Shown here: positions 3,742 through 32,955 of the stretch, piece by piece
Layout of the letters: each line of letters begins with the position of its first letter
How positions within the stretch are numbered: position 1 is the stretch's first letter
From: a virus
Reading direction: 5' to 3' (one strand)
Virus record (IMG/VR): IMGVR_UViG_3300049459_000188
Coordinates: 1-37,131 of that record
Length of the DNA stretch: 37,131 nt
Notes under the pieces: model-generated
What the model saw: only the letters and a program-made list of their open reading frames with translations
The model's database searches: none
What the model was told of the DNA's origin: nothing
Program-made: the position numbers and the translations under genes

Positions 3742-3818
3742 GGGCCTATAGCTCAGTTGGTTAGAGCAGAGGACTCATAATCCTTTGGTCCACGGTTCAA
3801 GTCCGTGTGGGCCCACCA
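3742..3818 (+). tRNA. tRNA-Ile2 (anticodon CAT, lysidine type)
   Basis: 77-base cloverleaf. The acceptor stem GGGCCTA pairs with TGGGCCC, followed by discriminator A and an encoded CCA. The anticodon stem GAGGA/TCCTT encloses loop CTCATAA (CAT at 3776-3778), and the T stem CACGG/CCGTG encloses TTCAAGT. CAT could be read as elongator Met, but C4-G69 and C5-G68 are the pairs used by lysidine synthetase TilS to recognise tRNA-Ile2, and the TTGGTC variable region resembles E. coli ileX. Bases 3774-3818 are duplicated at attR, so the 3' part of this working copy was probably supplied by the prophage. Confidence 0.9.
3774..3818 (+). repeat. attL core (45 bp direct repeat)
   Basis: Identical base for base to 35314-35358. 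The repeat begins in the anticodon loop (CTCATAA) and ends at the CCA. The flanking bases differ on both sides (GGA before this copy, CGGG before the other). Confidence 0.93.
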
Positions 3819-3822
3819 TCTT

Positions 3823-3850
3823 GAAAGCCACGTATTACGTGGCTTTCGTC
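3823..3850 (+). terminator. Phage-supplied terminator behind the rebuilt tRNA
   Basis: Hairpin with an 11-bp stem, GAAAGCCACGT (3823-3833) and ACGTGGCTTTC (3837-3847), with a 3-base loop. The downstream T tract is poor. It lies on the phage side of attL and occupies the position of the different hairpin at 35364-35386 beyond attR, so the phage seems to bring a replacement terminator with the tRNA 3' end. Confidence 0.6.
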
Positions 3851-3897
3851 GTTTCTGGCAACTGAAAAAACCGGTCAGGCGAATTGCAAAAAATGCG

Positions 3898-3936
3898 GTC
3901 CGTCCAAAATTCGTCCAATTTCAATTTTGGACGGAC
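3898..3936. promoter_or_regulatory. Integrase arm-type sites and inverted repeat
   Basis: CGTCCAAA (3901) and CGTCCAAT (3912) are direct repeats 11 bases apart. A related pair, again 11 apart, lies inside the right end (35200 and 35211). The first left copy is also half of a 14-bp inverted repeat (3898-3911 with 3923-3936). Paired short repeats in both arms are typical of binding sites for the N-terminal domain of tyrosine integrases. The inverted repeat may also end the int transcript. Confidence 0.6.
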
Positions 3937-3938
3937 AT

Positions 3939-5003
3939 TTACGCTACCTCAGCGATCACCGGTTTCGCTTCCAAGAGGCTGGCCAGTGGATTCAGATTGA
4001 CGACTTCGGCCAAGTGTCCAGGACTGAAGTGAGCATACTTTTGAGTCATGGCCAACGTCGCATGCCCAAGCACTTTTTGAAGCGTCAAAATATCCCCGCC
4101 GTTCCTCATGTAATGGGATGCGAATGTGTGTCGCAGGACGTGCGTCATCTGCCCATCGGGTAACTCTAATCCGATCGCCTCAACACTACGCCGAAAGGTG
4201 ATGGCGCAAGGTCTGAAAGGCAGAGCAGCTTTCAACCGCTCCTCAAGCCGTTTCGAGATTGGCACAGACCGATTCTTGCTGGATTTGGTGCGGCTGTAGT
4301 GCACCATCTGATTTCGCACCTGGCGCGGTTGAAGCGCTTCCGCTTCGCCCCACCTGGCACCGGTGGCCAGACACACTTCAGCGATCAACCCGGCGTCGGA
4401 ATCCCGTTTAGCCAGATCGCCCAATAGTTGCTCGATCTGCTCGCTCAGCAGGTAGGCCATCTCCGTTTCGTCGAACTTGAGTTTGCGCACCTTGCCCAGC
4501 GGGTTGTCGACGTCCCACTCCCCCAGTCTGGCCAGCTCGTTGAATACAGCACGTAGATACGTCAGCTCATGATTCAGCATGTTTGCGCTGATGGGCTTCG
4601 GATCCGCGCCGTCTTTGGAGTAACCAGTGCCTGGCGTCGATCTGGAATGCTTCCCCTCTGCGCGCTCGGCGCGGTACTGCGCAAAGTGAGCAGAAGTGAA
4701 CTTATGCGCCTTCGGGTTCCCCATTCGATTCACCATACTGACCAACAACGCTAGGCGCTGTTTGCCGGTCTTCAGGTTCTGGCCGTGGACGACGTACCAG
4801 CGATTGACCAGGTCGAGCATAGTTCGCGCATCGTGCTTGGCGGGCTTAGCAACTTGCCCCGACGCACCTTCCCCCATGACCTTGCTGTGGTAATGGGTTG
4901 CTTCGTTTTTGGTAGGGAAAATCCTGCGGGTTCGATAGCCGTAGCTGCCGTCAGGGCGGCAGTCCACTTCGTAGCGGCCATCCGGTAGTTTTCTTATCGG
5001 CAT
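3939..5003 (-). CDS. int: Tyrosine-family phage integrase
   Basis: Site-specific recombinase of 354 residues that would insert and excise the prophage at tRNA-Ile2. The catalytic set is visible: Arg in ATGARWGE (about residue 216), a Lys-containing strand ([12 protein letters not shown]), HxxR in HVLRHTF (about 291), LGH (about 316) and the nucleophile Tyr in TQKYAHF (about 325). An N-terminal arm-binding region and a SAM-like core-binding domain precede these. The gene points at attL, with its stop 120 bases from the tRNA, as usual for tRNA-targeted integrases. The ATG at 5003 ([11 protein letters not shown]) is preferred over the upstream extension to 5030 because it matches family N-termini and leaves a 16-base gap after the repressor gene, so C and int are probably one transcript. 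Confidence 0.95.
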
Positions 5004-5019
5004 GGTGTCGCGTCCTACG

Positions 5020-5268
5020 TCACTGGCCAATCACGGGGCTGATCTGACCCGCTTCAGGTGCGACCTCATCAGTCACCAGCCACAGCGCATATTTTTTGAA
5101 CCGCGGATGCATGGTGACCTTCAACAACTCAACCGAGCTGACGGACTTACTGCGTCCATACTCATAGCCCTTCCAAGTATCCATTTTGACGCCGGTGAGT
5201 TCGCAAATTTCGGTTTGTGTCAGTCGCTCTGTCAGCCGCACTTCCTTGAGCTTGCTTCCTAAATCCAT
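5020..5268 (-). CDS. C: P2 C-like immunity repressor (helix-turn-helix)
   Basis: 82-residue protein. An N-terminal helix-turn-helix ([20 protein letters not shown]) is followed by a short C-terminal part ending [15 protein letters not shown], closely similar as recalled to the P2 C repressor ending (TNQIAPESGQIAPAL). It should bind the divergent control region, hold off cox and early genes, and transcribe int with itself. There is no S24-type autocleavage domain, so direct RecA-driven self-cleavage is not expected. The ATG at 5268 has AAGGGG upstream on its strand; the longer frame runs through the promoter region and is unlikely. Confidence 0.85.
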
Positions 5269-5277
5269 GACGACCCC

Positions 5278-5327
5278 TTGATTTTGTGTATGTACATACA
5301 TATTCTGTGGGCGCAGATACATATCTG
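5278..5327. promoter_or_regulatory. Lysis-lysogeny promoter and operator region
   Basis: TTGATT (5278-5283) and TATTCT (5301-5306), 17 bases apart, make a plausible sigma70 promoter for the Cox-like gene and early operon. The whole spacer is nearly filled by a perfect 14-bp palindrome, TGTATGTACATACA (5287-5300). A second near-palindrome, CAGATACATATCTG, lies at 5314-5327. The 14-mer recurs exactly at 11043-11056 upstream of ogr. A protein bound here would block the rightward promoter; whether it is C, Cox or another regulator is unknown. Confidence 0.65.
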
Positions 5328-5355
5328 CTGCATATATACCCACGGAGCTTACCAA

Positions 5356-5577
5356 ATGCAGATCACGATCGACACGCCCTACACCACTGTCAGAGAACTA
5401 GCCCGACGCTCCGGCCAGTCGGAACGAGCCATCCGAAACGACATCGAGCGCGGCCGCATCCTGATTCGTGAAAAGACGGAAGGCTCGAAAGAAGCGGTGC
5501 TGATCAACATGCTCGCCTTGGCCATCGAAGCAGCTCAGCAGGCCGAGCGCGTTATGTCCGCATCGGCCAAGCGCTGA
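5356..5577 (+). CDS. Cox/excisionase-like DNA-binding protein
   Basis: 73-residue protein with a predicted helix-turn-helix (TVRELARRSGQSERAIRNDI) followed by a basic segment and a helical tail. Its size and its position, divergent from C and first in the early operon, match Cox of P2 and HP1, which represses the lysogenic promoter and directs excision. The ATG at 5356 has GGAG nine bases upstream; the longer frame starts within the promoter. The function is inferred from position and fold, as Cox sequences diverge strongly. Confidence 0.7.
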   Translation: MQITIDTPYTTVRELARRSGQSERAIRNDIERGRILIREKTEGSKEAVLINMLALAIEAAQQAERVMSASAKR

Positions 5578-5587
5578 GGGGCTGGAA

Positions 5588-8242
5588 ATGCAATTCGAAG
5601 ATATCTACCGCTTGGAAGTGGTCGAAGCCCTGAAGCATGACAACGACCTGGACTTCAAAGACATCGGCACCACCTACTTTCAAAAAGGTGTTTGTCCTGG
5701 GTGTGGGGAACGCACCCTGTACATCGCTCGAAAGCAGCCTTATCAGCTCAAGTGCAATCGCTTGAACCAATGCCAATTCGAGGAAAAAACCCGGGAGCGC
5801 TACAGCCACCTGTTCGAAAACCTCAGTGAGCGGTTCCCTCGTACCGAGCTGAATCCAAACGCGACGGCCGATGCTTACCTACAGCGTAATCGCGGCTTTG
5901 ATATCAGCAAGATGAAGGGCTGGTATGAACAAGGCCGCCGTCCAATGAAGGACGGCCAATGGGCTGACACTGTCCGGTTCCCGCTTTGCAACGGTCATTG
6001 GGAACGCATCATTGACGTCACCATGGTCAAGGCAAACGAGGGAGATAAGGCGGGGATCAAAAAGGGGATGGACTACAAGGGCGGATGCTGGGCGCCGCCA
6101 GGAATGACCATCGAGCCAGGGGATACCGTTTATGTCGTTGAAGGCATCTTCCACGCTATCGCTTTATTCCTTGCCGGCTACAAGGCCGTCGCTTCGATTT
6201 CAGCCAATAACTTTCCCTGGAATCTGATCGAGGAACACAAGGGCAAGAAAGTCCGCTGGGTCATCGCCCTGGACGACGACGCCGCCGGTCACTCTGTCAT
6301 CCCGAAATACCGCAGTCAGTTGCACGCCAAAGATGAAAAGGCATGGGTAGCGCTCGCTGGGGCGGACCGCGATTGGGACGACGTTTACCGCGATGGCCAA
6401 CTGAATGACGACTTCATGCGGGAAGCCTGCTACCAGGGCCGCTTGTTCGTGGCGGTCAGCGCCGCCAAAAAAGCGTTTCTTCTTTACCTCAAGAGGCCGC
6501 GTAGCTTCTTCCTGGTCGAATTTCAGAATCGCCTCTACTCCGCCAAGATCAACACCGACGAACTGAACAAGGATCTGGACGGCGATAACGTGAACGGCCA
6601 CTGGCCAAAGTTCGAAAAGCATTGCGACATGAAGCAAGTGGCCAACTGCGTTCCGCATTTTGAGTACATCCAGCGAGATGCCATCACCGGTGACCAGCAG
6701 TTCTTTTTTCAATTCAACTTCCCTAACACCGCACAGAACTGCAAGGAACCGCTAGCGCCGAACTCCATTGGTGATCCCCGCAGCTTTGCCAAATCTTTGC
6801 TGGAGCGCACCCCGGGCGGCAACTTCGAAGGCGGTGAAAAGGTGCTGGCCATGCTTCGCAGTAAGTGGCTGGACAATGCGCTTACCGTTCGATCGCTACC
6901 GTTCGTAGGGTATGACGCGGCGAGCAAGACCTACTGCTATCAGAAGTTCGGTTACCACAAGGGCCGCGAGTACCTGGCGAACGATCATGGCTATTTGGAA
7001 GTGGGTAAGACCGGTCTGAAAACCTCACTCAACAGCCTTGTGATCGTTCGAGGTAACCCGTTCGATCCAAGCTGGTTTTCCGACTTTCTCGCCGTGCACC
7101 ATTTGAATGGACTGGCGGCGCTATCGTGGTGGACGGCAACGCTGTTTGTTCAGCAGATCCGCAGCAAACAAGAGTCGTGGCCTTTTCTGGAGTTGACCGG
7201 TGACGCCGGTGCCGGCAAATCCAGCTTGCTCAGGTTTCTATGGCGCCTGTTCGGCCGATCCAACTTTGAGGGCATCAAGCCCAACAGTACCGGCGCCAGT
7301 GCGATCGGTTTGACCCGCGCCCTGTCCCAAGTCAGCAATTTGCCGGTGGTGCTGATCGAATCCGACAGCCAGTCTGTCGACGCGCAAGGCCGCACGGTAG
7401 TCAGTCAGTACAACTGGGAAATCTGGAAACAGTTGTTCGACCACAACGCTACGTTGCGAACGGTTGGCGTGAAATCCTCGAGCAACGACACCGACAGCCT
7501 GGTCTTCCTCGCCGCTCTGTGCATCGCACAGAACGCCAGTGTGGAAGGCTCAGAGCCGATCCTGACTCGTATCAGCCACTACCACGCAACCAGAGCACAC
7601 CACACACCTGCGTTAAAGGTTCTAGCCGTACGCCTGAACAGTCTGCCGGTGGAGCACTTGGCGGGATATCTAGGGCATTGCATAGGCCAAGAGTCGGAAT
7701 GGCTTCAACGTTACTTCGACGCCTTTGCGGAGTACGAACAACGCCTGCAAGCCAATACGGCAATCCAGCATCAGCGGATTGTGCTGTGTCACGCACAGAT
7801 GATGGCAGCAGCCAAAGCCACTCAGGCGCTGTTTCCCGAGTGGAGCGACGACACCCTGGTCCAACTGATCAAACACATCGAACGGCGCGCGATTGACCGC
7901 CAGCAGCGCGTCAGCACTGAGAACCCGACAGCCGGCCGCTTCTGGCAGATCTATCACTACCTGAACGAGCGGACGATGTTCATCAGCGACAAGGATGGGG
8001 ATCGCGAGGTCACGCAGGAAACGCTCAATCACAGCGCCGATAAAGATCTGATCGCGATCAACATCGAACACTTCCACAACGCTTGCCGTCTGGCTGGCCA
8101 AGAAGTCATTCACGCGACTCAACTGCACCGAGCTTTACCGCTCAGCACCACACACACGTTCATCGAAACCCGCAAAGTCCGATCGGTAATCGAGAAACGC
8201 TCGCTCAACTGCTGGTTGTTCCGGAAGGGGAGCAAGTCGTGA
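5588..8242 (+). CDS. Toprim primase-helicase replication protein
   Basis: 884-residue phage replication protein, probably combining primer synthesis and DNA unwinding. A zinc ribbon lies at about residues 36-60 (VCPGCGERT, then KCNRLNQC). A Toprim domain follows, with its glutamate in YVVEGIFHA (about 180) and ALDDDAAG (about 227). A P-loop ATPase domain has Walker A TGDAGAGKSS (about 538) and a Walker B-like LPVVLIESD (about 586). The start has AGGGG about eight bases upstream and lies 10 bases after the previous gene. Its position corresponds to P2 A or HP1 rep, but a Toprim primase-helicase is a different enzyme type from the rolling-circle A protein, so replication is probably not P2-style. 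The repeat cluster just downstream is a likely substrate. Confidence 0.85.
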   Translation: MQFEDIYRLEVVEALKHDNDLDFKDIGTTYFQKGVCPGCGERTLYIARKQPYQLKCNRLNQCQFEEKTRERYSHLFENLSERFPRTELNPNATADAYLQRNRGFDISKMKGWYEQGRRPMKDGQWADTVRFPLCNGHWERIIDVTMVKANEGDKAGIKKGMDYKGGCWAPPGMTIEPGDTVYVVEGIFHAIALFLAGYKAVASISANNFPWNLIEEHKGKKVRWVIALDDDAAGHSVIPKYRSQLHAKDEKAWVALAGADRDWDDVYRDGQLNDDFMREACYQGRLFVAVSAAKKAFLLYLKRPRSFFLVEFQNRLYSAKINTDELNKDLDGDNVNGHWPKFEKHCDMKQVANCVPHFEYIQRDAITGDQQFFFQFNFPNTAQNCKEPLAPNSIGDPRSFAKSLLERTPGGNFEGGEKVLAMLRSKWLDNALTVRSLPFVGYDAASKTYCYQKFGYHKGREYLANDHGYLEVGKTGLKTSLNSLVIVRGNPFDPSWFSDFLAVHHLNGLAALSWWTATLFVQQIRSKQESWPFLELTGDAGAGKSSLLRFLWRLFGRSNFEGIKPNSTGASAIGLTRALSQVSNLPVVLIESDSQSVDAQGRTVVSQYNWEIWKQLFDHNATLRTVGVKSSSNDTDSLVFLAALCIAQNASVEGSEPILTRISHYHATRAHHTPALKVLAVRLNSLPVEHLAGYLGHCIGQESEWLQRYFDAFAEYEQRLQANTAIQHQRIVLCHAQMMAAAKATQALFPEWSDDTLVQLIKHIERRAIDRQQRVSTENPTAGRFWQIYHYLNERTMFISDKDGDREVTQETLNHSADKDLIAINIEHFHNACRLAGQEVIHATQLHRALPLSTTHTFIETRKVRSVIEKRSLNCWLFRKGSKS

Positions 8243-8622
8243 AAAACGTCGTGGGTGTTAAACCAGGTGCGTGGGGGAGCACCCCTAGTTTTGTGCAAAT
8301 GCGTGTGTGGCTACTGACTGGGCGGAACATCTGGAACATGAATATCTATAAGAAAAATATCTATAAAAAACAAATAGATAACAAGCATAAACCCACCATC
8401 ACCGACCGGAACAAACCGGAACGCACTGGAACAACTTTCCAATCGCTGTTCCGGGAGTGTTCCGCCATAGGCATTTGCCGGAACAACCCGCAAAGCCTTG
8501 TGCTTCAAGGGCTACAGCGATTTTTCCGAATTCGCTGTTCCACAATGTTCCAGTTATCCGTTCCACCGCAAAGGCGCGCTGAAAGCCCCGTAAACCTCGG
8601 GTTCGCGGTCATCAACTTTTAA
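8239..8622 (+). CDS. Uncertain 127-residue ORF overlapping the repeat cluster
   Basis: A GTG at 8239 overlaps the TGA of the replication gene (GTGA), and an AAGGGGAG ribosome site precedes it, so translation could be coupled. The predicted protein has no recognisable domain and contains a Lys/Ile/Asn-rich stretch where the DNA is AT-rich. Most of the frame lies over the GGAAC/GTTCC repeats, so its sequence may be dictated by the DNA repeats rather than by protein selection. It could equally be non-coding origin DNA. Confidence 0.3.
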   Translation: MKNVVGVKPGAWGSTPSFVQMRVWLLTGRNIWNMNIYKKNIYKKQIDNKHKPTITDRNKPERTGTTFQSLFRECSAIGICRNNPQSLVLQGLQRFFRIRCSTMFQLSVPPQRRAESPVNLGFAVINF

Positions 8623-8638
8623 TTGTTCCGGTTGTTCC
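8324..8638. repeat. GGAAC/GTTCC repeat cluster with AT-rich block, candidate replication origin
   Basis: Thirteen copies of GGAAC or its complement GTTCC lie in 315 bases. GGAAC starts at 8324, 8333, 8408, 8418, 8428 and 8480. GTTCC starts at 8448, 8459, 8537, 8547, 8560, 8625 and 8634. Several neighbours are 9-11 bases apart, about one helical turn. Between the first pair and the next triplet is an AT-rich block with AATATCTATAA twice (8341 and 8356). Iterons beside a DNA-unwinding-like block directly after the replication gene suggest an origin. Confidence 0.6.
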
Positions 8639-8711
8639 GGGGGACGCCGGGGCACACGCGACATTTTTTCAGGCGCGGCCTGATCCAACCAGCAAAACAA
8701 GGAGCAACACC

Positions 8712-9005
8712 ATGCAAGTACAAGTCATAACTGGCGGGCAAGCCACGGGCAAAACAACCCAACTGCGCGCCATTCAAGCCGAACTGCAAGCGCAGGGCAT
8801 CGAGGCGCCAATCCTCGTAGGCCAGCACTGGACAACCCCGTACTTCGTGAACTTGATCACAGAGAAAGCCATGACGGGGGCCAAGCATTTCCTGGCCGAC
8901 GACTGCACCCAGTTTCAAATCAAAGCGGCGATGAATCTGAAAGCACAGGGCATTCACTCGGGCATCCCCTCTGACTTTGTCGTTCATTTGGTGCGCCAAG
9001 CGTAA
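8712..9005 (+). CDS. Small P-loop protein
   Basis: 97-residue protein with a clear Walker A motif near the N-terminus (GGQATGKTT, about residues 8-16) and an acidic HFLADD strand near residue 60 that could serve as Walker B. It is very short for an NTPase: only a minimal nucleotide-binding core is present, so it may act as a subunit or be a reduced descendant of a larger ATPase. A strong AAGGAG site precedes the ATG. It is the first of five closely spaced small early genes. No specific function can be assigned. Confidence 0.7.
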   Translation: MQVQVITGGQATGKTTQLRAIQAELQAQGIEAPILVGQHWTTPYFVNLITEKAMTGAKHFLADDCTQFQIKAAMNLKAQGIHSGIPSDFVVHLVRQA

Positions 9006-9018
9006 GGAGGGGGAAGCC

Positions 9019-9270
9019 ATGATTATTCGATACGTCGCCAACAAGCTGCCCGGCGAACTGGCTCTACCGACCAGTTACGTCGACCAGCGCACCCCTGAAG
9101 ACTTGGCCGAACTGGCAGCGGCTGCACATTGGAGGGATCACCCGGAGGACACGCCGACATTCGTCACGGTCGTGCACATGCGCGACGTCGATGGGCATGA
9201 CCTGGGACTATTTGAAGTGCGCTGTGAACAGCGCCCGGTATTCACGGCAAGCCAATTGCGGCAGGCGTGA
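9019..9270 (+). CDS. Hypothetical early protein
   Basis: 83 residues, no recognised family. The ATG at 9019 has a strong ribosome site (GGAGGGGGAA) and lies 13 bases after the P-loop gene, so the two are probably co-transcribed. The protein is mixed alpha/beta and acidic in its middle (TPEDLAELAAAA), with no membrane segment or metal motif. The frame also has an earlier start inside the previous gene, which is less likely. Confidence 0.65.
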   Translation: MIIRYVANKLPGELALPTSYVDQRTPEDLAELAAAAHWRDHPEDTPTFVTVVHMRDVDGHDLGLFEVRCEQRPVFTASQLRQA

Positions 9271-9331
9271 GAGAGACGGTGTCGAGGAGTTGCAGCTCCC
9301 CGACACCAACCACCACGAAAGGAGCAACACC

Positions 9332-9613
9332 ATGCAAGCACAGCACCTAAGCAGCAGCGGTAACAAGGCTATCACACCGCCGGATCAAGGCCGCAGCACC
9401 TTTAAGCCCACTCGCCCATTGTTGGCCACGGCGGTAATAGGCGCGGCCCTGATCGGTTACGTGGTTCACAAGACCCCTGACGCCCGGCAACGACTCGAAA
9501 GCTTAGCGGCAATGGCACAGAACCTTGGCGACCTGTCCGACCGTGACGCTGACGTTGTCGCACAGGTACTCGCAAAACCGACCACACCACTACTGAAAGG
9601 AAATGCCCAATGA
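9332..9613 (+). CDS. Small single-span membrane protein
   Basis: 93 residues with one hydrophobic segment ([17 protein letters not shown], about residues 30-46) between a polar N-terminus and a helical acidic C-terminal part. No family was recognised. The start is set by AAGGAG seven bases upstream; the 20 bases covering this ribosome site and first codons are identical to those of the P-loop gene at 8699-8718. It overlaps the next gene by four bases (ATGA). A role in the host envelope during early infection is possible but unsupported. Confidence 0.65.
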
Positions 9614-9831
9614 TTGATTCTCGCGAGCAAGACAAATTTGTGGTTCGTCTGCCCGAAGGCTTGCGCCCTGAGATTGCGGCAGTCGCCCGAATGAATAATC
9701 GCAGCATGAATGGAGAGATTATTTCTCGCCTACAGCAGTCGCTCGCCTTCGAACAACTGGCACAACAGCAAGGCCAGTTGATTGCCCAATTACTGAAGCG
9801 CATCAGCGCCTTGGAGACTGAACCATGCTGA
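9610..9831 (+). CDS. Arc-family ribbon-helix-helix DNA-binding protein
   Basis: 73 residues. The strand [12 protein letters not shown] followed by helices ([25 protein letters not shown]) is the Arc-type ribbon-helix-helix fold, with a glutamine-rich helical tail that may form a coiled coil. Such proteins bind DNA as dimers of dimers and usually repress phage promoters. It starts within the end of the membrane-protein gene (ATGA overlap) and overlaps the next start by seven bases. It may shut down early transcription; its operator was not identified. Confidence 0.8.
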
Positions 9832-10067
9832 TAGATGGTCAATTCATCGCTGTCAGTGAGGCCGAGTACGACAGCGCCCGAAAACAGGCTGAGCTACCCA
9901 ATGACTTTCACCTGGTGGAGGCCACCGCTCTACTACACCACGACACGGGGAATGGCATTGCGCGCATTCGCTTGCCAGTAGGACTGGTGGTCGCCGCATT
10001 TGAAGATCCGCAGGGTCATCGCCGATACGGGGTGGTATCGCTACCGATGCCCCGCAATAAACCGTAA
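9825..10067 (+). CDS. Hypothetical early protein, last gene of the operon
   Basis: 80 residues, no recognised family. The N-terminus ([18 protein letters not shown]) and the later beta-rich portion suggest a small globular protein. It overlaps the Arc-type gene by seven bases, indicating translational coupling, and is followed about 40 bases later by a strong terminator. Confidence 0.6.
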
Positions 10068-10107
10068 TAATTTTAGCGGCTAAAACTACACTGCTTTGCT
10101 GATTCAC

Positions 10108-10136
10108 AAGGGCGCTTTGGCGCCCTTTTCTTTTTT
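10108..10136 (+). terminator. Strong intrinsic terminator of the early operon
   Basis: An 8-bp stem, AAGGGCGC (10108-10115) and GCGCCCTT (10120-10127), with a 4-base loop, is followed by TTCTTTTTT. Just upstream lies a short inverted repeat, TTTTAGCGGCTAAAA (10072-10086). Confidence 0.85.
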
Positions 10137-10392
10137 CTGTAAATCACCAATCAAATCGAAAACTGTTGTTTCTTGACATACATGAAAACATACTTTCATG
10201 CAATTCATTGCCCCCAAGACCAACAGCACGAAAAATCAAATCACATAGAAACACCGCAAGAGTTTAGCTATACACAACCTATAGCGGCGGATCTGAACTA
10301 ATAAACACTGAACATGAAGCGGGCTAGCGCATTGGCCATGATCTAACCGCGATTACATGAAACTATAAAATCATGCATGCGATTGGGAACTA
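10137..10392. other. Non-coding AT-rich stretch with possible promoter elements
   Basis: No credible gene. TTGACA at 10173-10178 is a consensus -35 box but has no matching -10 at normal spacing. It overlaps an inverted repeat, CATGAAA (10181-10187) and TTTCATG (10194-10200), that could be an operator. TATAAA at 10364-10369 lies just before the next gene. These may serve the two small genes downstream. Confidence 0.4.
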
Positions 10393-10575
10393 ATGGCATT
10401 TTGCAATGTCACACAAAACCCCACTCTACGCGGCTTCCCGGACGATTCAGGATGGCATAGTGTGAGCTTTGAGATGTGCCGACTAGTTCAAAAAGCCTCC
10501 AAAATACTATTTGACAATCTATTTTTTAAATTCGTAAAGTGCGCCGCAATTGATCCGCCCAGCATGGAGCCGTAG
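10393..10575 (+). CDS. Hypothetical 60-residue protein
   Basis: The ATG is preceded by GGGAA and the stop lies two bases before the next start, so the pair looks translationally coupled. No family was recognised. The protein has a hydrophobic middle (KILFDNLFFKFVKCAAI) that could be an amphipathic or membrane-associated helix. Base composition is lower in G+C than the early operon, and the gene sits beyond the early terminator, so it may be accessory cargo. Confidence 0.45.
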   Translation: MAFCNVTQNPTLRGFPDDSGWHSVSFEMCRLVQKASKILFDNLFFKFVKCAAIDPPSMEP

Positions 10576-10577
10576 TA

Positions 10578-10790
10578 ATGGACGAGCGCGTAATCATCAA
10601 TACGAGAGATGTTTTAGAAGAAGTCGCAAAAGTAATAATGTCGTTAAGCGTGTCAGTCGGTGCTCGACCACTGAACGAGGAAGAAAGCGGCGGAGTAGTA
10701 GCGACCATGACTTGGAGTCATGGTCGATTACTGGAATGTTCTAAAGAACTGGGAGAACTGTTTAATCAGGCGGGCAATGAACTAATTTGA
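10578..10790 (+). CDS. Hypothetical 70-residue protein
   Basis: Small, mostly helical acidic protein (MDERVIINTRDVLEEVAKVI at its start) of unknown function. It follows the previous gene by two bases. Its last 25 bases overlap the end of the convergent ogr gene, a tight arrangement suggesting both are real. No motif allows a functional call. Confidence 0.5.
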   Translation: MDERVIINTRDVLEEVAKVIMSLSVSVGARPLNEEESGGVVATMTWSHGRLLECSKELGELFNQAGNELI

Positions 10791-11023
10791 TCGAATAGCT
10801 GACGCTGCTGAGCAATAGGCATTTCACGGAGTCGGTCGAAAATCAACTGGTCGACCGACTGAGCAGATGGACGCAAAGGATGTGAATAGGTAAGGCTCAT
10901 TACGAACGTATGCCCGCAGCGCGGGTTGAGACACTGGCAATACAGCTTCGCATATTCCAGATTCATGTTTTCACGCGAACCAATACGAGCCTTACCCCCA
11001 CATTCCCTACAAGTAATCCGCAT
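10766..11023 (-). CDS. ogr: Ogr/Delta-like zinc-finger late transcription activator
   Basis: 85 residues. The cysteine pattern is CREC near residue 5, then YCQCLNPRCGHTF near residue 30, the Ogr/Delta C-x2-C...C-x4-C finger. Ogr proteins contact RNA polymerase alpha and turn on P2-type late promoters. The ATG at 11023 gives the family N-terminus (MRITCREC) and has AAGGGG upstream; the longer frame would begin within the palindrome. It is transcribed leftward behind the portal gene. The palindrome at 11043-11056 lies 20 bases upstream of the start codon, implying control by the same regulator as the lysogeny switch. Confidence 0.88.
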   Translation of the reverse strand: MRITCRECGGKARIGSRENMNLEYAKLYCQCLNPRCGHTFVMSLTYSHPLRPSAQSVDQLIFDRLREMPIAQQRQLFDQISSLPA

Positions 11024-11042
11024 TGCGCCCCTTCCCCAATGG

Positions 11043-11056
11043 TGTATGTACATACA
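11043..11056. promoter_or_regulatory. Second copy of the 14-bp palindromic operator, upstream of ogr
   Basis: TGTATGTACATACA, identical to 5287-5300 in the lysogeny control region. It lies between the portal stop and the ogr start. No convincing -35/-10 pair was identified around it on the minus strand. Confidence 0.65.
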
Positions 11057-11076
11057 CTATTCTACGTGAAGCAACC

Positions 11077-12096
11077 TCAAACTGCTGCGCCTGCCTTTAC
11101 TGGGTCACGCCATCCAATACGCCGATCGGCCCGCAGTGAGTCGTTCAACTGTTCGAATAATTGGCAGATCGGATGGATTTCATTGTTGGTGTAAACCCGA
11201 TCGATCTTTTCGATGTCACCAAATCCACCGCTGTTCTCCGGGATAATCCCCGCCAGCGCCGGGTTCATCCGCCAGGCCGCAATGACGTCGTTACGGGTGA
11301 TGTTTTTCACCTTCTCCAGCTCGTCTTTCGCCTGGAAGTCCCCCACGGGGATAATTTGAATCGCCTTTTCGGTACCGCCCGGAATGTTCACGAACATCGA
11401 CCTGAAGTTACCCACACCCTTGCTTGCACTGATCTGCGCGCGCAGCTCATTTTCGTCGTCTTCGGTCAAGTTCGGGTCGTTGGTGTAGAAGATATAACCC
11501 GCGTGGGCACCGTTGCTGTAATAGCGTCGGCGGAATAGGGTCGCGGCCTCATTGAGCAACAATGCCTGCATGCCGCCCAGGTAATCGGGAATGCCGTAGA
11601 CGTCCTGCTCCACGTCATAATTCATCACATGCTCGACGTCTTCCTGGTCGAATTCCACTTCCTTGCCGTCCGGCAGCAACATGACAAAGCCGCCGTCCAC
11701 TTTTACGCGCATGTTGATCGCCGCCAGGTGTTCCATCTCCAGGACTTCGCCGAACACGTTACGGCTCTTCAGGAAATAGGACTCGCCGAACACCATGAAA
11801 TCCAGCCCTGCACGGCTCATAGTGCGGATGCTACACCCCGCCGAGGGAACGAACTCTCGCAACAGCAGGTTGCGCTTGAAACCCGGAATGGCGCCGTGGT
11901 GCGCGTTGGCGCGCAACAGCTTCGCCAGTCCTTGGCGTGACACTGGCGGCGTGTAAATACGGCCGTCGTGGCTGGCAAACGTGCCCAGGTATTGCCCGAT
12001 GTTTTCGGTCAGCACCTGCTCGGGAGCGCCGAACGAAAAGGCCCGCGCTCGCCCGCGTGGTGGATTGACGGTTTGCTGGTTTCTTCGCTTGCCCAT
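11077..12096 (-). CDS. Q: Portal protein (P2 gpQ-like, PBSX family)
   Basis: 339 residues, close to P2 gpQ (344). It forms the dodecameric portal through which DNA enters and leaves the capsid. Family-like segments include FGAPEQVL near the N-terminus, the YGIPDYLGG region and the conserved C-terminal half (NDVIAAWRMNPALAGIIPEN). The ATG at 12096 (MGKRRNQQ) is chosen over the upstream frame extension because the latter lacks portal similarity and lies in the terminase gene. The first 266 bases overlap the 3' end of the terminase reading frame, an unusually long overlap. Confidence 0.92.
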   Translation of the reverse strand: MGKRRNQQTVNPPRGRARAFSFGAPEQVLTENIGQYLGTFASHDGRIYTPPVSRQGLAKLLRANAHHGAIPGFKRNLLLREFVPSAGCSIRTMSRAGLDFMVFGESYFLKSRNVFGEVLEMEHLAAINMRVKVDGGFVMLLPDGKEVEFDQEDVEHVMNYDVEQDVYGIPDYLGGMQALLLNEAATLFRRRYYSNGAHAGYIFYTNDPNLTEDDENELRAQISASKGVGNFRSMFVNIPGGTEKAIQIIPVGDFQAKDELEKVKNITRNDVIAAWRMNPALAGIIPENSGGFGDIEKIDRVYTNNEIHPICQLFEQLNDSLRADRRIGWRDPVKAGAAV

Positions 12097-13888
12097 GTGT
12101 ACCTGTTCCGCTGAGTGTGTAGGAGCTTCGGCGCTGCTTGTTGGTGTTGAGTGGTTCGTGGGCCAGCGCGTGCATGATTGCCCAGGCAATGTCCGCGTGG
12201 CCTGTCGCGTCGGTGCGAGAGGCGCTATAGGTGATCTGGCCGCTGCTGGTCGCACCGCGCTTGATGGTCAAGAAGGCCTGCGCGATGTCGTTCCAACCAG
12301 CGTCCCATTCGATTCGACTGCCTTGGATGGTGTCCTGGGCTTTCAGTACCAGGCTGTTTTTGGTTTCAAGGCTGTAGTGAATTGAGGTCGCTCGCGGGTA
12401 GAAGTCGCGCACCAGGTCAAACACCCCGTAGCCGATACCAGTGGTATCGATGCCGATGTGCTGGACGTTGAAACGCTCCGTGAGCTTTTTGATTTGCGCT
12501 GCCTGGAAGGTGAACGAATGCCCACGCCAGCTGTGTTTTTCCAGTATCCGAAACTTGGCGCCAGGCTCTAAAGGTGGAGCTAGGACAACACAGGTCGCGT
12601 CGTCTCGCGTTCGACTCGGGTCGTAGCCGATCCATACCGGACTGTTTCCGTAGGGGCGATCGTCCTCGGGTTCGAAGTCCGTCCACAACGACAGATCCGA
12701 GTAGCACCGCTCCAGATCGGCCAGTGCGAATACTCCTTGGGTGCTGTCGATGAATTTGCAGTAGAACAGCTGCTGGAACTTGTCCGCGTCGTACTCAAGC
12801 TGCAATTGCTCCAGATCGAACAGATCGCAGCCACCGGCGATTGCGTCCTCAATGGTGATGATCTTGCGCCACTGGCCATCGGGGCACAGCGCGCCGGCGG
12901 CAATTTCCTTTTCGCTTGGCCATGGATTCTTCGCGGCCTTGCGCTTGCTGTTGCGGAAAGTCTCACCAGTCCAGAACGGATAGGCCTGATGCGTTACTGC
13001 GCTCGGAGTAGAGAAATACGTCTTGCGCCACTTCTTATGCGTGCCCATAGCACTGGCCACAGTGCTGAGTTTTTCGAAGTCGCGAATCCAGAAATACTCG
13101 TCGATGTAGACGTGACCGTGGTGCCCCTGGGCAGTGCTGCTGTTGGTGCTGAGAAACCGCAGTTCGGCACCGTTGCTCAACACAATAGGATTGCCGGTCA
13201 GCTCCAATCCGAACCACTGCTGGGCGAACTGGATGATGTAGCTACGGAAAATCTCGGATTGCGATCGGCTGGCCGACAAGAACATTTGATTGTCCCCGGT
13301 CAGCACCGCGTCCATGAACGCTTCGCCAGCGAAATAGTAGGTCAAACCTACTTGCCGACTCTTCAGAATGTTGCGGATCCGGCGTGTCAGCGGGTTTTGT
13401 TTGGCTTCAAACAATTCCTTTTGATAGCCGTACATCTTGCTGATGAACTTATCAAGGAAGTCGACTTCGGTTAGACCGGAAACGTCGTTCTTCACTTTCT
13501 TTTCGCGCTTCTTACCGCCTCTGTCGCCACGTTCCCGGCGCCTGTCTTGGCGATCACCTTGGTCGTGTGCGGGCGCCTCACCTGCGATCGCTGGCGAAGC
13601 TTTGTTGGACTGCTTCAACAGTCGATCGCGTACGGTGGTCAGTCGGTCCAGTTCGTCCAACTCACCTTTGGTCAGAGTGGTCTGTTTCTCAAGGATCAAC
13701 GTCAGACGCCGGCTGACCGCTGTCAGCGGTTCTTCATCCGAAAGCATCTCGTCCCAGCCGCCCTTGGCGATCCAGTAATAGACGATCCGGATATTCGGCA
13801 GCTTGAGCTGGACCTGAATCTCTTTCGGCTTACACCGACGCAAATAGAGACGTTTTGCGGCTTCTTTGACTTCGATTGAATAGAGCAT
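11831..13888 (-). CDS. P: Terminase large subunit (P2 gpP-like ATPase/nuclease)
   Basis: 685 residues against about 590 for P2 gpP. An N-terminal helix-turn-helix (KPKEIQVQLKLPNIRIVYYW) precedes the ATPase motor, with a Walker A-like SRQVGLTYY (about residue 174) and Walker B VYIDEYFW (about 260). RNase H-like nuclease acidic residues follow in IGYDPSRTRDD (about 416), HIGIDTTGIG (about 475) and HADIAWAIMHAL (about 561). A very basic low-complexity linker (QGDRQDRRRERGDRGGKKRE) sits at about 110-130. Similarity to the family ends near HEPLNTNKQRRSS; the last roughly 90 residues read through the portal gene in another frame and are Arg/Ala-rich, so the original stop may have been lost. Confidence 0.9.
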   Translation of the reverse strand: MLYSIEVKEAAKRLYLRRCKPKEIQVQLKLPNIRIVYYWIAKGGWDEMLSDEEPLTAVSRRLTLILEKQTTLTKGELDELDRLTTVRDRLLKQSNKASPAIAGEAPAHDQGDRQDRRRERGDRGGKKREKKVKNDVSGLTEVDFLDKFISKMYGYQKELFEAKQNPLTRRIRNILKSRQVGLTYYFAGEAFMDAVLTGDNQMFLSASRSQSEIFRSYIIQFAQQWFGLELTGNPIVLSNGAELRFLSTNSSTAQGHHGHVYIDEYFWIRDFEKLSTVASAMGTHKKWRKTYFSTPSAVTHQAYPFWTGETFRNSKRKAAKNPWPSEKEIAAGALCPDGQWRKIITIEDAIAGGCDLFDLEQLQLEYDADKFQQLFYCKFIDSTQGVFALADLERCYSDLSLWTDFEPEDDRPYGNSPVWIGYDPSRTRDDATCVVLAPPLEPGAKFRILEKHSWRGHSFTFQAAQIKKLTERFNVQHIGIDTTGIGYGVFDLVRDFYPRATSIHYSLETKNSLVLKAQDTIQGSRIEWDAGWNDIAQAFLTIKRGATSSGQITYSASRTDATGHADIAWAIMHALAHEPLNTNKQRRSSYTLSGTGTHGQAKKPANRQSTTRASAGLFVRRSRAGADRKHRAIPGHVCQPRRPYLHAASVTPRTGEAVARQRAPRRHSGFQAQPAVARVRSLGGV

Positions 13889-14050
13889 GGTCCGCAGTCT
13901 ATGCGGCGAAAACGCCGGAAACGCGGTGTTAAATTCCGCGAATCTCCTAGATCGTAAAAATAGGAGAAAAGCAAAAACGAAGCGTTTGTTTGGTGGTCAG
14001 CGGCTCCCTATCGTGGCGGCTCAAACCACCGATTGAGCGCAGAAACGCCA
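13889..14050. promoter_or_regulatory. Divergent late promoter region between P and O
   Basis: This gap must carry the promoters for the leftward P-Q and rightward O-onward late operons, normally Ogr-activated. A P2-type TGT-N12-ACA site was not found. Visible structure: TCTCCTA (13943-13949) with TAGGAGA (13961-13967), and CGCGG (13923-13927) with CCGCG (13936-13940). Either inverted repeat could be the activator site. Confidence 0.45.
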
Positions 14051-14977
14051 ATGCCCCGTTCCCTTGTTTCTTTCTGGAAACGTGTCGCCACCAGCGGCAC
14101 CACCGCTGATAACCGCGAAATTCTGCCCCAGGAACTGCGCGACATTGCCGAGACCTACAAGCCGTCTTTTTACACGGCAGTGATCTGGTGCGAACACGAA
14201 CGTGGTTATGGATCCCATGGGACGGTCTACGCCGTGCGCCTGGTAGAAGACGACGAGGATCTGGAACCAGGCCAAGTCGCGCTGGAGGCCCAACTCAAGC
14301 CCAACGATCAATTGTTGTGGCTGAACGACCAGGGCCAGAAGCTGTTCACCAGCATCGAGATCACTCCTAACTTCCGTGGCAAAGGCAAAGCCTATTTGAC
14401 CGGTCTGGCTGTGACCGACTCCCCTGCCAGCACTGGCACCCAAGAGCTGTATTTCTCCCGCAAAAAGGCCTCCCCCACCGTTTATTACAGCGCCGCCCTC
14501 CCGCTGGGTTCATTTGACGAATCTGAACCCAAGGGCGAGCTGCAAAAACTCCTTTCGATGTTCTCCGGACTGTTCAAACGCTTCGGCATCGAAGAACCCC
14601 CAGCAACCCCGAACCCCCAATCAGAGAGCCAAACCCCAATGGATGAAGCCCAAGCCAAAGCGCTGGCCGCACTGGTCGAACAGCTGTTGCTCGTCGCTGC
14701 CGGCATTCAAACCTTGATCGAGCCAGACACGGCTGAAGTTGAAGCAGACCAGGATCAAATCGACGCGGTCGGCACCTCCGTGCAGGACATTCTCGACACC
14801 GCTGAAGAAGAGCGCGAGTACTCCCGTCGCCGCAAGGGCGCGACCGGCAACCTGGCGTTGGCCAAAGCCGTAGCCAACCTGGACAAGAAATTCACCGCGC
14901 TACTGGATACGCCGAAGGGCCGCAATGTGCCGCGCACCACCGGCGCGACACAAAGCCCGAAGCGGAGAACCTTGTAA
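14051..14977 (+). CDS. O: Capsid scaffolding protein/protease (P2 gpO-like)
   Basis: 308 residues (P2 gpO has 284). The N-terminal half carries the gpO-type protease domain (TYKPSFYTAVIWCEHERG, the GYGSHG turn and TGLAVTDSPASTGT with the candidate catalytic serine). The C-terminal half is helical scaffold rich in Ala, Glu and Gln, with a likely coiled coil. It assembles the procapsid around gpN and is then cleaved. The ATG at 14051 is preferred to a TTG at 14033 because MPRSLVSFW is the usual family start. It is first in the late run and ends directly before the capsid gene. Confidence 0.9.
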   Translation: MPRSLVSFWKRVATSGTTADNREILPQELRDIAETYKPSFYTAVIWCEHERGYGSHGTVYAVRLVEDDEDLEPGQVALEAQLKPNDQLLWLNDQGQKLFTSIEITPNFRGKGKAYLTGLAVTDSPASTGTQELYFSRKKASPTVYYSAALPLGSFDESEPKGELQKLLSMFSGLFKRFGIEEPPATPNPQSESQTPMDEAQAKALAALVEQLLLVAAGIQTLIEPDTAEVEADQDQIDAVGTSVQDILDTAEEEREYSRRRKGATGNLALAKAVANLDKKFTALLDTPKGRNVPRTTGATQSPKRRTL

Positions 14978-16003
14978 ATGGGCGCCTCTCTCAGCAGTCA
15001 CGCCCAGGAACAGTTCGCGCTTCTGCAGGACGACATGGCCGAGTCGTACAACGTCCATGACGTGTCTCGGCAGTTCGCGGTAGAACCGAGTATTGCCCAA
15101 GAGCTGAACGACAAAATCACCGAAAAATCCGACTTTCTCAGTCGCATCAACGTGGTTCCTGTCAATGAAATCAAGGGTCAAAAAGTCATGCTTGGCGTGA
15201 CCGGCCCGGTGTCCAGCCGCACCAACACCAAAACCAAAGACCGCGAAGCCAAGGACTTCAGCGATGTGTCCGGCTTGGATTACGAGCTGTATCACACTGA
15301 ATCCGACGTAGGTCTGCCATTCGCGAAGATCGACAGCTGGGCCAAGTTCCCGGACTTTGCAGAGCGTTACGGCGCGGCGGTGCAACGCCAGATCGCGCTG
15401 GATCGCATCATGATCGGCTGGCATGGCGTCGAAGCGGCGGCACAGACCGACCTCGCGGCTCATCCGATGCTGCAAGACGTCAACAAAGGCTGGCTGCAAT
15501 TGGCCCGAGAGCAGATCCCTGCTCAGGTGCTGAAGGAAGGCAAGACCGCCGGGAAGATCACCCTCGGCGCCGGCGGCGACTACGCCAATCTTGACGCCCT
15601 GGTGCATGACGTCAAACAGATGATCGATCCGGTTTTCCGCGATGCTGGCGACCTGATCGCAATCATCGGCAGCGATCTGCTGGCCAATGACAAGGGCAAG
15701 CTGTACGCCAAGCAAGGCGACACGCCGACCGAAAAGGAGCGTATCGAGAACGCTCAGGTGATCGACACCTACGGCGGTTTGCCGTCCTTCGTGATCCCTC
15801 ACTTTCCATCCACCGGCGTCGTCGTCACCAGTTGGGACAACCTGTCGATTTACTTTCAAGACAGCAGCTGGCGACGCCATCTGATCGAAAACCCAAAACG
15901 CTCTCGCGTTGAGGATTACAACGGCCGCAACGAGGGCTATGTGATCGAGCAGCTGGAAAAGTTCGCGGCGATTGAAGCCAGCAATCTGGAGCTGCTGCCG
16001 TGA
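14978..16003 (+). CDS. N: Major capsid protein (P2 gpN-like)
   Basis: 341 residues (P2 gpN has 357). The N-terminus has the gpN-type start (SSHAQEQFALLQDDMAESY) followed by an HK97-like capsid body; conserved stretches include EKSDFLSRINVVPV and DRIMIGWHGVEAA. P2 gpN is processed near its N-terminus by gpO, and this protein probably is too. The start follows the gpO stop directly, and the last four bases (GTGA) overlap the small terminase start. Confidence 0.93.
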   Translation: MGASLSSHAQEQFALLQDDMAESYNVHDVSRQFAVEPSIAQELNDKITEKSDFLSRINVVPVNEIKGQKVMLGVTGPVSSRTNTKTKDREAKDFSDVSGLDYELYHTESDVGLPFAKIDSWAKFPDFAERYGAAVQRQIALDRIMIGWHGVEAAAQTDLAAHPMLQDVNKGWLQLAREQIPAQVLKEGKTAGKITLGAGGDYANLDALVHDVKQMIDPVFRDAGDLIAIIGSDLLANDKGKLYAKQGDTPTEKERIENAQVIDTYGGLPSFVIPHFPSTGVVVTSWDNLSIYFQDSSWRRHLIENPKRSRVEDYNGRNEGYVIEQLEKFAAIEASNLELLP

Positions 16004-16704
16004 GTATCGCCCTTGCCCACAAGCGGCGTGTTCTCGCGGAAGGTCCGGGCACGGTGCCCCGTGCGGAGCCGTACAGCTCCAGCACGGCTCTGGCCAGTCC
16101 AGCCAATGCGCAGAAGCACCTCAAGCTGATGGAGAGCGCGCTGGCCGTTGATTTGGAACGACTCAGCAACATCAACAACCACGAAACCCGCCGGCTGATT
16201 AAGCGTGACGAGTTGCTGCCCAAGTACATGGAATACGTCGAGCGCTACCGCGACTCAGGATTGAATCACCCGAACCCGGTGTTAGTGCATGTACTGGTCT
16301 GGCTCTTCGATACCGAGCAGTTCGAGTTGGGCTTGCAGGTCGCCATGTTCGCTATCCAGCAAGGCCAGGCAATGCCCGACGGATTCAAGCGTGACGTGCC
16401 GACGTTCGTGGGTGACGCAGTGATCGACTGGGCCGAGAACGAGCAAAAGTGCGGGCGCAGCCCCGAGCCATACCTGAGCGACATGATGCCGTTCGTGGAT
16501 GGTGAATGGGATCTGCCGGCACAAATCCCGGCGCGCTATCACAAGTTGCTCGGCATCCGCGCTATCGACGCCAAGGAATGGGAAACCGCCGTCCGCCACT
16601 TTGAGCGTGCCCAAGAACTGCATTCCGAAATTGGCGTGGGAACGCGCCTGAAAGGCGCTCGCAAGGCACTGGAAAAACAACAGGCTCAAAGCGCCCCCGA
16701 ATAA
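16000..16704 (+). CDS. M: Terminase small subunit (P2 gpM-like)
   Basis: 234 residues (P2 gpM has 247). It should recognise the cos site and recruit the large subunit. It has an all-helical C-terminal half and the gpM-type segment HVLVWLFDTEQFELGLQVA. It starts with GTG in a GTGA overlap with the capsid gene. It is followed by about 100 bases without a gene before L, containing a small CCCC/GGGG hairpin (about 16714-16726). Confidence 0.88.
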   Translation: MSIALAHKRRVLAEGPGTVPRAEPYSSSTALASPANAQKHLKLMESALAVDLERLSNINNHETRRLIKRDELLPKYMEYVERYRDSGLNHPNPVLVHVLVWLFDTEQFELGLQVAMFAIQQGQAMPDGFKRDVPTFVGDAVIDWAENEQKCGRSPEPYLSDMMPFVDGEWDLPAQIPARYHKLLGIRAIDAKEWETAVRHFERAQELHSEIGVGTRLKGARKALEKQQAQSAPE

Positions 16705-16802
16705 CCCGACTACCCCCCCTGCGGGGAACTGTGGACGTGAGTCGGCCATTTATGGCCCGCCCCATGAGAAACAGTTTCCCCGCCCTATTTGAGTGCCCAG
16801 TA

Positions 16803-17264
16803 ATGAGCTTTTCCGGGAAACCCACGACCTTTGTGGAACAGGCCATCGAGAACGACGGCTTTTGGCCAAACCTCTCCGTGTCTGAGTTTCAGAAGGGTTA
16901 CCGCCTGCCGGCGGAGTACCTGGTAGACATGCTGGTCACCGACTTAAAGACCGCAATGATTGAGGTAAACGGCGATCTAACCAAGCGCAAAAGCGACTGG
17001 CAGAACGTCGGTGTCACCACCGTGGAAACGGCGGATCCTACGGTCCTGCCTGAACGCACATTTCACTCTGCGACGTACAAGCGCGCCGTTTACTGCCGTG
17101 CAAAAGCCAGCCTACTGACCCAATTCGCCACCGTGAACCGTCGCGAAAGCGCCGAAAATATCGGCAAGGAATTGCCCGAGCGCGGCGAAACCTTTCTGGA
17201 ATTCAGCCAGCAAGCCATCCGGGTTCTGCAAGGCCGTGGCCGTATAACGGCGGCGCTGCTATGA
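16803..17264 (+). CDS. L: Head completion/stabilisation protein (P2 gpL-like)
   Basis: 153 residues (P2 gpL has 169). It is a connector subunit that seals the portal after packaging. Typical gpL features are the N-terminal FWPNLSVSEFQKGYRLP and the region around residues 95-125 (RTFHSATYKRAVYCRAKASL). The ATG at 16803 gives MSFSGKPTTF; frames from 16731 or 16764 add residues unlike the family. Its ribosome site is weak. It overlaps the next gene by four bases. Confidence 0.85.
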   Translation: MSFSGKPTTFVEQAIENDGFWPNLSVSEFQKGYRLPAEYLVDMLVTDLKTAMIEVNGDLTKRKSDWQNVGVTTVETADPTVLPERTFHSATYKRAVYCRAKASLLTQFATVNRRESAENIGKELPERGETFLEFSQQAIRVLQGRGRITAALL

Positions 17265-17713
17265 CCAAGCTGCAAGGACTGACCGCCTACCTTTTGGAGC
17301 GCCGCCTGGTTGCACCTGAACAGCTCGACAGCTTCACCGAGCAGGTAAAGCTTTCGCTGATCTGGAAACCCGACGTCGAAGGCATGCACTTCGCCGATAT
17401 GCACTATCGCGCCGCGATCGTGCTGGAGCGCTTCGCCGACCATCCGGCACGCCTGATGGCCCTGGTCGGCAGTTGGCTGGAAAACCACGACGCCGATCGC
17501 GATCGCCATGAATTGCCGGCGCCGGAGTTCGCGGTGGAGCCGTTGGACACCGACCTTTTCGACGTGGAAGTCACGCTGGAATTCGCCGAGCCGCAATATC
17601 TGGCCGAAGACCCGGACGGCGAGATCGAAGCCTTCGGCAAGACCTGGGCCTTTGTCCCGTTTGATCTGTGGATTGCAGAGCGCGGCGAGGTGGCCACCGA
17701 TGGCCGGGCGTAG
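17261..17713 (+). CDS. R: Tail completion protein (P2 gpR-like)
   Basis: 150 residues (P2 gpR has 155). It acts at the tail terminus during head-tail joining. The family pattern is visible in MHYRAAIVLERFADHPARL and the C-terminal EAFGKTWAFVPFDLWIAE. It starts in an ATGA overlap with L and ends 14 bases inside S. Confidence 0.88.
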   Translation: MTKLQGLTAYLLERRLVAPEQLDSFTEQVKLSLIWKPDVEGMHFADMHYRAAIVLERFADHPARLMALVGSWLENHDADRDRHELPAPEFAVEPLDTDLFDVEVTLEFAEPQYLAEDPDGEIEAFGKTWAFVPFDLWIAERGEVATDGRA

Positions 17714-18383
17714 CACGTTCGAACTCGACATTCGCGGTCGCTTGGGCGTACGCGAACAACTGGCGTTGTTGAGCCTGCCGCCGCAATTGCGCCGCCGCTT
17801 GCTGAACCAGGTCACCAAACGCGTGCGGACGATGAGCCGCAAGCGTGTGCGTGAGCAGAAGAACCTGGACGGCACGCCCTTCGCCCCACGCAGGGGCGAC
17901 AGCAAGGGCAAAAAGAAGATGGAAGCCGGCCTGGCCAAGTTGATGGTGGTCACCCGGGTGTCCGCTGATGAAGCGGAGTTGGGCTGGAAAAACGCCCTGA
18001 CCCGATGGGTCGCCGCGCAGCAACACAACGGCGTCAGTGAGCGCCGCACCGCCCAGCAGATGCGCCGATGGAACAAGACCCCACCGGGTTTGGCAGCAAC
18101 CGACAAGCAAGCAAAGCGCCTGCGGCGGTTGGGCTTCCGTGTGCGCCAAGCAGGCAAAAAGACGCTGACCCGGCCGTCGGTGGCGTGGATTCAAGAGCAT
18201 GTGAACTACGCCAAAGCCGGTTTGCTGATCCGGATCCTGGACGACCAGCGCAGCGAAAGCACCGGCGCGCAGAGCTGGGAAATCACGCTGCCGAAGCGCC
18301 AGTTCATCGGCGCCGAAACCGAACGCGAAACCAATCTCCTGATTAACCAGGTGTTGCAACAAATCCTAACTTCACCCCGCTAA
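17700..18383 (+). CDS. S: Tail completion protein (P2 gpS-like)
   Basis: 227 residues, longer than P2 gpS (150). The protein is very basic; the N-terminal half matches the gpS/virion morphogenesis type (SLPPQLRRRLLNQVTKRVR, then GTPFAPRR). The extra middle segment is Arg/Lys-rich. It probably joins heads to finished tails. The ATG at 17700 overlaps gpR by 14 bases; earlier starts in this frame would lie deep inside R and give a shadow sequence. Confidence 0.8.
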   Translation: MAGRSTFELDIRGRLGVREQLALLSLPPQLRRRLLNQVTKRVRTMSRKRVREQKNLDGTPFAPRRGDSKGKKKMEAGLAKLMVVTRVSADEAELGWKNALTRWVAAQQHNGVSERRTAQQMRRWNKTPPGLAATDKQAKRLRRLGFRVRQAGKKTLTRPSVAWIQEHVNYAKAGLLIRILDDQRSESTGAQSWEITLPKRQFIGAETERETNLLINQVLQQILTSPR

Positions 18384-18394
18384 CGAGGCACTGC

Positions 18395-19510: not shown

Positions 19511-19516
19511 CGCCCC

Positions 19517-21979: not shown

Positions 21980-21984
21980 CGACT

Positions 21985-25977: not shown

Positions 25978-25986
25978 GAGCGCACC

Positions 25987-27684: not shown

Positions 27685-27692
27685 GATCGAGC

Positions 27693-31522: not shown

Positions 31523-31525
31523 TGC

Positions 31526-32947: not shown

Positions 32948-32955
32948 GGCTTCTC

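What the first reader, a model, noticed from the sequence alone, without database searches (positions are those of the whole stretch)
5287..11056. The same 14-bp palindrome controls the lysogeny switch and sits upstream of the late activator ogr
TGTATGTACATACA occurs at 5287-5300, between the -35 and -10 of the putative early promoter, and again at 11043-11056, 20 bases before the ogr start codon. I saw no other copy. In P2, ogr is a distant gene not known to be under direct immunity control; here one regulator could gate both early genes and late activation. P2 C binds direct repeats rather than a palindrome, so the binder may be C, Cox or another protein.
Basis: partly seen in the sequence, partly recalled or inferred. 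Interest (0 to 1): 0.65.

Follow-up and report, generated by a model that had tools for sequence, protein, structure and literature searches.

The report
Prophage repressor also guards late activator
In a family of P2-like Pseudomonas prophages, the DNA site where the dormancy repressor shuts off the early genes is repeated at the promoter of the gene that switches on virus-particle production, so one repressor probably locks both steps, as the repressor of coliphage 186 is known to do.

Summary
TGTATGTACATACA occurs exactly twice in the window (5287-5300 and 11043-11056; none expected by chance). The first copy lies in the spacer of the early promoter beside a P2-type C repressor. The second lies just after the -10 of the ogr promoter.

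In 62 dereplicated relatives with C, cox and ogr, the ogr-upstream site changes with the C operator of the same phage (own pairs z=7.3 above permuted pairs; adjacent 19 bp z=-1.3; one phage per 80%-identity C cluster, median p 0.001). Partial Mantel tests favour C (r=0.30) over Cox (r=0.09). The C recognition helix tracks the switch operator. The dyad at ogr is weak or absent in relatives lacking this C, and enterobacterial P2-like phages show no match.

Best reading: C binds O1 and O2 at the switch and O3 at ogr, and represses early genes and the late activator together. CI of coliphage 186 is known to do this, so the logic is not new. New here is the circuit with a P2-type C, its spread through Pseudomonas phages, and operator co-evolution. 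Binding is not shown, and about a quarter of relatives match poorly, consistent with mosaicism.

The parts
3774..35358 (.). prophage between 45-bp att repeats (3774-3818 and 35314-35358), integrated in tRNA-Met
   Evidence: repeat; tRNA 3742-3818
5020..5268 (-). C immunity repressor, P2 C family (phrog_147; homolog of PDB 2XCJ/2L49)
5278..5306 (+). early promoter Pe: -35 TTGATT 5278-5283, -10 TATTCT 5301-5306
   Evidence: sequence; -35-like element at the same place in 67 of 67 distinct relatives
5287..5300 (.). operator O1 TGTATGTACATACA, in the Pe spacer
5308..5321 (.). candidate O2, degenerate copy (minus strand TGTATCTGCGCCCA, 9/14) 21 bp from O1; cleaner in relatives (L103 TGTATCGACATACA)
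   Evidence: sequence
5356..5577 (+). cox, Cox-like excisionase/repressor (phrog_575)
10766..11023 (-). ogr, Ogr/Delta zinc-finger late activator (PF04606)
11043..11056 (.). operator O3 TGTATGTACATACA, overlapping the predicted ogr transcription start
11059..11064 (-). -10 of Pogr (TAGAAT)
   Evidence: sequence; similar -10 at the same place in relatives
11077..12255 (-). Q portal gene; ogr is the next gene downstream, so read-through from the P-Q late operon is possible

Best explanation
The palindrome is the operator of the prophage's P2-type C repressor. In the lysogen, C binds O1 (with O2) and blocks the early promoter Pe, and binds O3 over the start of Pogr to block the late activator ogr. 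When C is removed, early genes and Ogr are released together, and Ogr then turns on the late operons. Shown: the sites, their positions and their co-variation with C across phages. Inferred: binding by C, repression at Pogr, and the effect on timing.
For: Two exact copies, zero expected, both in promoter-like positions. Relatives: own C-region/ogr-site similarity 536 versus 426.7 +/- 15.0 for permuted pairs (z=7.3, p about 2e-5), z=-1.3 for the adjacent 19 bp. One phage per C cluster: median z=4.1, 3.7 and 2.9 with 34, 22 and 17 clusters. Partial Mantel: O3~C given ogr and Cox r=0.30, p=0.0005; O3~Cox given C and ogr r=0.09, p=0.04; flank~C given ogr r=0.05, p=0.14. Clear cases: L197 C site GTACCCATACGGAACC and ogr site GTACCCATACGGGAACC; L124 C site GTTCCATATATGGAAC and ogr site GTGCCTTATATGGAAC; L173 C site GTTCCTTACAAGGAAC and ogr site GTTCCTTAGAAGGCAC, while its sister L170, with nearly the same flanks, differs within the site. 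The C recognition helix tracks the switch operator, e.g. VKMDTW with TGTATGTACATACA and VYLNTW with GTACACATACACAT. Dyad score at O3: 3.57 in C-bearing phages (shuffled 1.47), 1.73 in relatives lacking this C (shuffled 1.14). Precedent: 186 CI represses the promoter of late activator B (PMC8538670).
Against: No binding data. Roughly a quarter of relatives have an ogr site that does not match their own C operator (for example L004, L107, L105, L172, L165, L009, L213), and three (L239, L293, L294) have no evident site. The relatives share ancestry, so permutation p values are optimistic; with only 7 C clusters median p=0.04. O3 also follows ogr ancestry (partial r=0.27). O3 is a single site, whereas P2 C binds two repeats cooperatively (PMC4752584). 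The window's O2 is poor.
Confidence: 0.83

Rival explanations
2. A third regulator, such as the Arc-like protein at 9610-9831 or a host factor, binds both sites.
For: An Arc-like DNA-binding protein is encoded in the early region; some phages have ogr sites that do not match their C operator.
Against: O1 sits next to C directly after a -35 element in all 67 distinct relatives and changes with the C recognition helix. Co-variation with the Arc-like protein was not tested.
Confidence: 0.07
3. LexA/SOS box: TGT-N8-ACA has the spacing of the LexA site, so both promoters are controlled by host LexA.
For: Same spacing as CTGT-N8-ACAG; a genuine-looking LexA box exists at 33233-33248.
Against: The outer C and G are absent at both palindromes (GTGT...ACAT, GTGT...ACAC); in relatives the same positions hold GGTTCC- or GTACCC-type sites that are not LexA-like.
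Confidence: 0.02
4. Coincidence, or a duplication without function at ogr.
For: Poorly matching relatives exist.
Against: No exact copy in shuffles; the position just after the ogr -10 and the dyad are retained while the sequence changes.
Confidence: 0.02

Closest known systems
Coliphage 186 CI control of pR and of the promoter of late activator B (Ogr homolog)
   Same: The immunity repressor represses early lytic promoters and the promoter of the Ogr-type late activator (PMC8538670, citing Dibbens, Gregory and Egan 1992).
   Different: The repressor here is a short P2-type C of 82 residues. The ogr gene lies just downstream of Q. The third operator is a single palindrome over the predicted start.
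Phage P2 C repressor and its O1/O2 operators at Pe
   Same: Homologous repressor (2XCJ/2L49, E=1e-13); O1 in the Pe spacer; O1-O2 distance mostly 21-25 bp here, 22 bp in P2 (PMC4752584).
   Different: P2 C is described as binding 8-bp direct repeats; here many operators are dyads. In a P2 record (L300) ogr lies at the other end of the genome and shows no C-like site upstream.
Vibrio phage K139 and Salinivibrio phage Smhb1 (P2-like, ogr between replication gene and portal)
   Same: Same position of ogr (PMC8537503).
   Different: K139 has a CI-type repressor; ogr-upstream regions of the more distant relatives, mostly Vibrio and enterobacterial, show no dyad signal.

Membership tests
P2 C repressor family | sequence homology to P2 C | tested here: met
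   phrog_147 E=6e-27; PDB 2L49/2XCJ E=1e-13 over residues 5-80
P2 C repressor family | gene beside int, divergent from cox | tested here: met
P2 C repressor family | two operators about 22 bp apart flanking the Pe -10 | tested here: met
   O1-O2 start distance mostly 21-25 bp in relatives; O2 degenerate in the window
P2 C repressor family | operators are non-palindromic 8-bp direct repeats | tested here: not met
   O1 is a perfect 14-bp palindrome and dyads are common in relatives. This concerns the form of the operator, not the homology of the protein
Ogr/Delta late activators | Ogr_Delta zinc finger | tested here: met
   PF04606, 46.2 bits against cut-off 26.3
Ogr/Delta late activators | activates late promoters | not testable with these tools
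   needs a reporter or in vitro transcription
186-type control (immunity repressor represses the late activator) | repressor operator in the promoter of the late activator | tested here: met
   O3 co-varies with C
186-type control (immunity repressor represses the late activator) | repressor shown to repress that promoter | not testable with these tools
   no binding or expression data
186 CI repressor family | homology of the repressor to 186 CI | not tested
   C is assigned to the P2 C family instead

The most novel reading that the evidence does not exclude
These phages rebuilt the 186 induction circuit from P2 parts: a third, co-evolving C operator locks ogr, and the LexA-controlled cassette near attR (P0003/P0004) encodes an SOS-induced factor that inactivates C, so DNA damage would release early genes and the late activator through one repressor in a phage type often regarded as not SOS-inducible.
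Probability: 0.2. Interest if true: 0.68.

Novelty: new variant of a known kind. Interest (0 to 1): 0.52.

Why it matters
It suggests that tying the late activator to immunity occurs with two different kinds of repressor (186 CI and P2-type C), so keeping Ogr off in lysogens may be a recurrent need. The phages also offer a natural data set in which C recognition helices, switch operators and a distant third operator change together, useful for decoding C specificity. Mismatched mosaics such as phita81A/2 predict lysogens with leaky ogr, which can be tested directly.

Tried and rejected
LexA reading of the palindrome: outer bases wrong and not kept in relatives. Ogr self-binding: the P2 Ogr site, recalled from memory, is TGT-N12-ACA, not TGT-N8-ACA, and GGTTCC-type ogr sites lack it; not tested further. 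Whole-locus best-match scan: too noisy for degenerate sites, replaced by region-limited permutation tests. Generic promoter scan: no hits. Enterobacterial P2-like phages and P2: own match no better than permuted (116 versus 116.5 +/- 5.2). Relatives lacking this C (PfPro group): other repressors lie near ogr and the site is nearly invariant with a weak dyad; whether their repressors control ogr was not resolved. Host copy count: not possible, the record is the viral contig only. Literature searches found no report of C control of ogr in Pseudomonas phages, within the open-access library only.

Full report
Observation. The 14-mer TGTATGTACATACA is at 5287-5300 and 11043-11056 and nowhere else; shuffles of the window contain none. 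The window holds a P2-like prophage in tRNA-Met, bounded by a 45-bp repeat at 3774-3818 and 35314-35358. The order is int(-), C(-), cox(+), primase(+), small early genes(+), ogr(-), Q(-), then the terminase and structural genes.

Anatomy. The first copy ends at the -10 of a promoter pointing at cox: TTGATT, 17 bp, TATTCT, with the palindrome as the last 14 bases of the spacer. The second copy begins 2 bp after TAGAAT, the likely -10 of ogr, so it would cover the transcription start. The generic scan does not score these as strong promoters. In relatives, however, the geometry is fixed: all 67 distinct switch regions have a TTGAC-like element before the operator, and the ogr sites lie directly after a [CT]A[AG]AAT-type element.

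Relatives. Loci with ogr or C were collected from GTDB genomes, IMG/VR and the phage records. Among phages with C, cox and ogr, the switch operators fall into classes: TGTATGTACATACA (window), TGTGCATTTGCACA, GTACACATACACAT, GTACCCATACGGAACC (phi3), GTTCC-N5/6-GGAAC, TTCCTATATAGG (JFK) and GGTGTACGAACGCGACC (phita). They usually come in two copies 21-25 bp apart, matching the P2 O1/O2 distance of 22 bp (PMC4752584). The residues of the C recognition helix track the class, which identifies these as C operators.

Co-variation at ogr. In 62 dereplicated phages, the 19 bp after the ogr -10 match the phage's own C region better than others' (536 versus 426.7 +/- 15.0, z=7.3), while the 19 bp immediately upstream do not (z=-1.3). 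Taking one phage per C cluster, median z is 4.1 (34 clusters), 3.7 (22), 2.9 (17) and 1.9 (7). Partial Mantel tests give r=0.30 for C and 0.09 for Cox. Phages with similar C but different ogr share more ogr-site sequence (mean score 7.5) than phages different in both (5.1). The dyad at this place is strong only in phages that carry C. Enterobacterial P2-like phages and P2 show no such match.

Exceptions. About a quarter of relatives do not match. In phita81A/2 (L004) C is of another class than its ogr site, GATTCCTATAACGGAGCC, which is the JFK site with two changes in its outer arms. L172 and L009 also combine an ogr site with a C of a different class. I read these as recent exchange of the C region with the distant operator lagging; this is inference. 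They could instead mean that another protein binds O3 in some phages.

Mechanism. C would repress Pe through O1 and O2 and Pogr through O3. Ogr could also be made by read-through from the P-Q late operon after induction, because ogr follows Q on the same strand; this would give positive feedback (inference). Coliphage 186 CI is documented to repress both pR and the promoter of late activator B (PMC8538670), so the logic has a precedent. The operator form and genome position differ, and the repressor here belongs to the P2 C family.

Side finding. A LexA-type box CTGTATATACAGACAG at 33233-33248 lies inside the prophage, 25 bp upstream of P0003 (32956-33207). All 33 P0003 relatives with enough upstream sequence have a CTG-N10-CAG box there, against about 0.05 expected per 90 bp. 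This resembles the SOS-controlled tum gene of 186 (PMC7708051). P0003 and P0004 match only PHROGs of unknown function, and P0003 relatives also occur in prophages in which this C was not found (contigs of L134/L311 and L156/L312), so an anti-C role is speculative.

Limits. No binding or expression data; promoter calls are by conservation; the host genome could not be searched; phylogenetic dependence makes the permutation p values optimistic. The P2 record L300 was used only for its C-cox and ogr-upstream stretches.

Noticed in passing
33233-33248 and 32651-33207: LexA-type box CTGTATATACAGACAG inside the prophage, 25 bp upstream of two small unknown genes (P0003, P0004). 33 of 33 relatives of P0003 have a CTG-N10-CAG box starting at about -26 to -43. 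Looks like an SOS-controlled cassette placed like tum of phage 186.
   Followed up: partly
3774-3818 and 35314-35358: 45-bp att repeat; the prophage is integrated in the 3' part of tRNA-Met (3742-3818).
   Followed up: yes
11064-11090 and the same place in relatives (e.g. L105, L119, L134): Many relatives, with or without this C, carry a second dyad such as GCCAC-N8-GTGGC or GACACAA-N4-TTGTGTC just upstream of the ogr -10; role unknown (activator site or hairpin). It is weak in the window.
   Followed up: no
31526-32560 (-): 344-aa protein with hydrophobic segments near its C terminus and no match in Pfam, NCBIfam, PHROGs or PADLOC; possible prophage cargo gene.
   Followed up: partly
5313-5328: Near-palindrome GCAGATA-CA-TATCTGC between Pe and cox, overlapping the candidate O2; may be a Cox site.
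   Followed up: no
L300 1530-1666: The switch region of this P2 record contains a perfect palindrome GGAACCTATATAGGTTCC and the related AGTCCCTATATAGGCACC, i.e. palindromic repeats in an enterobacterial P2-type switch too.
   Followed up: no
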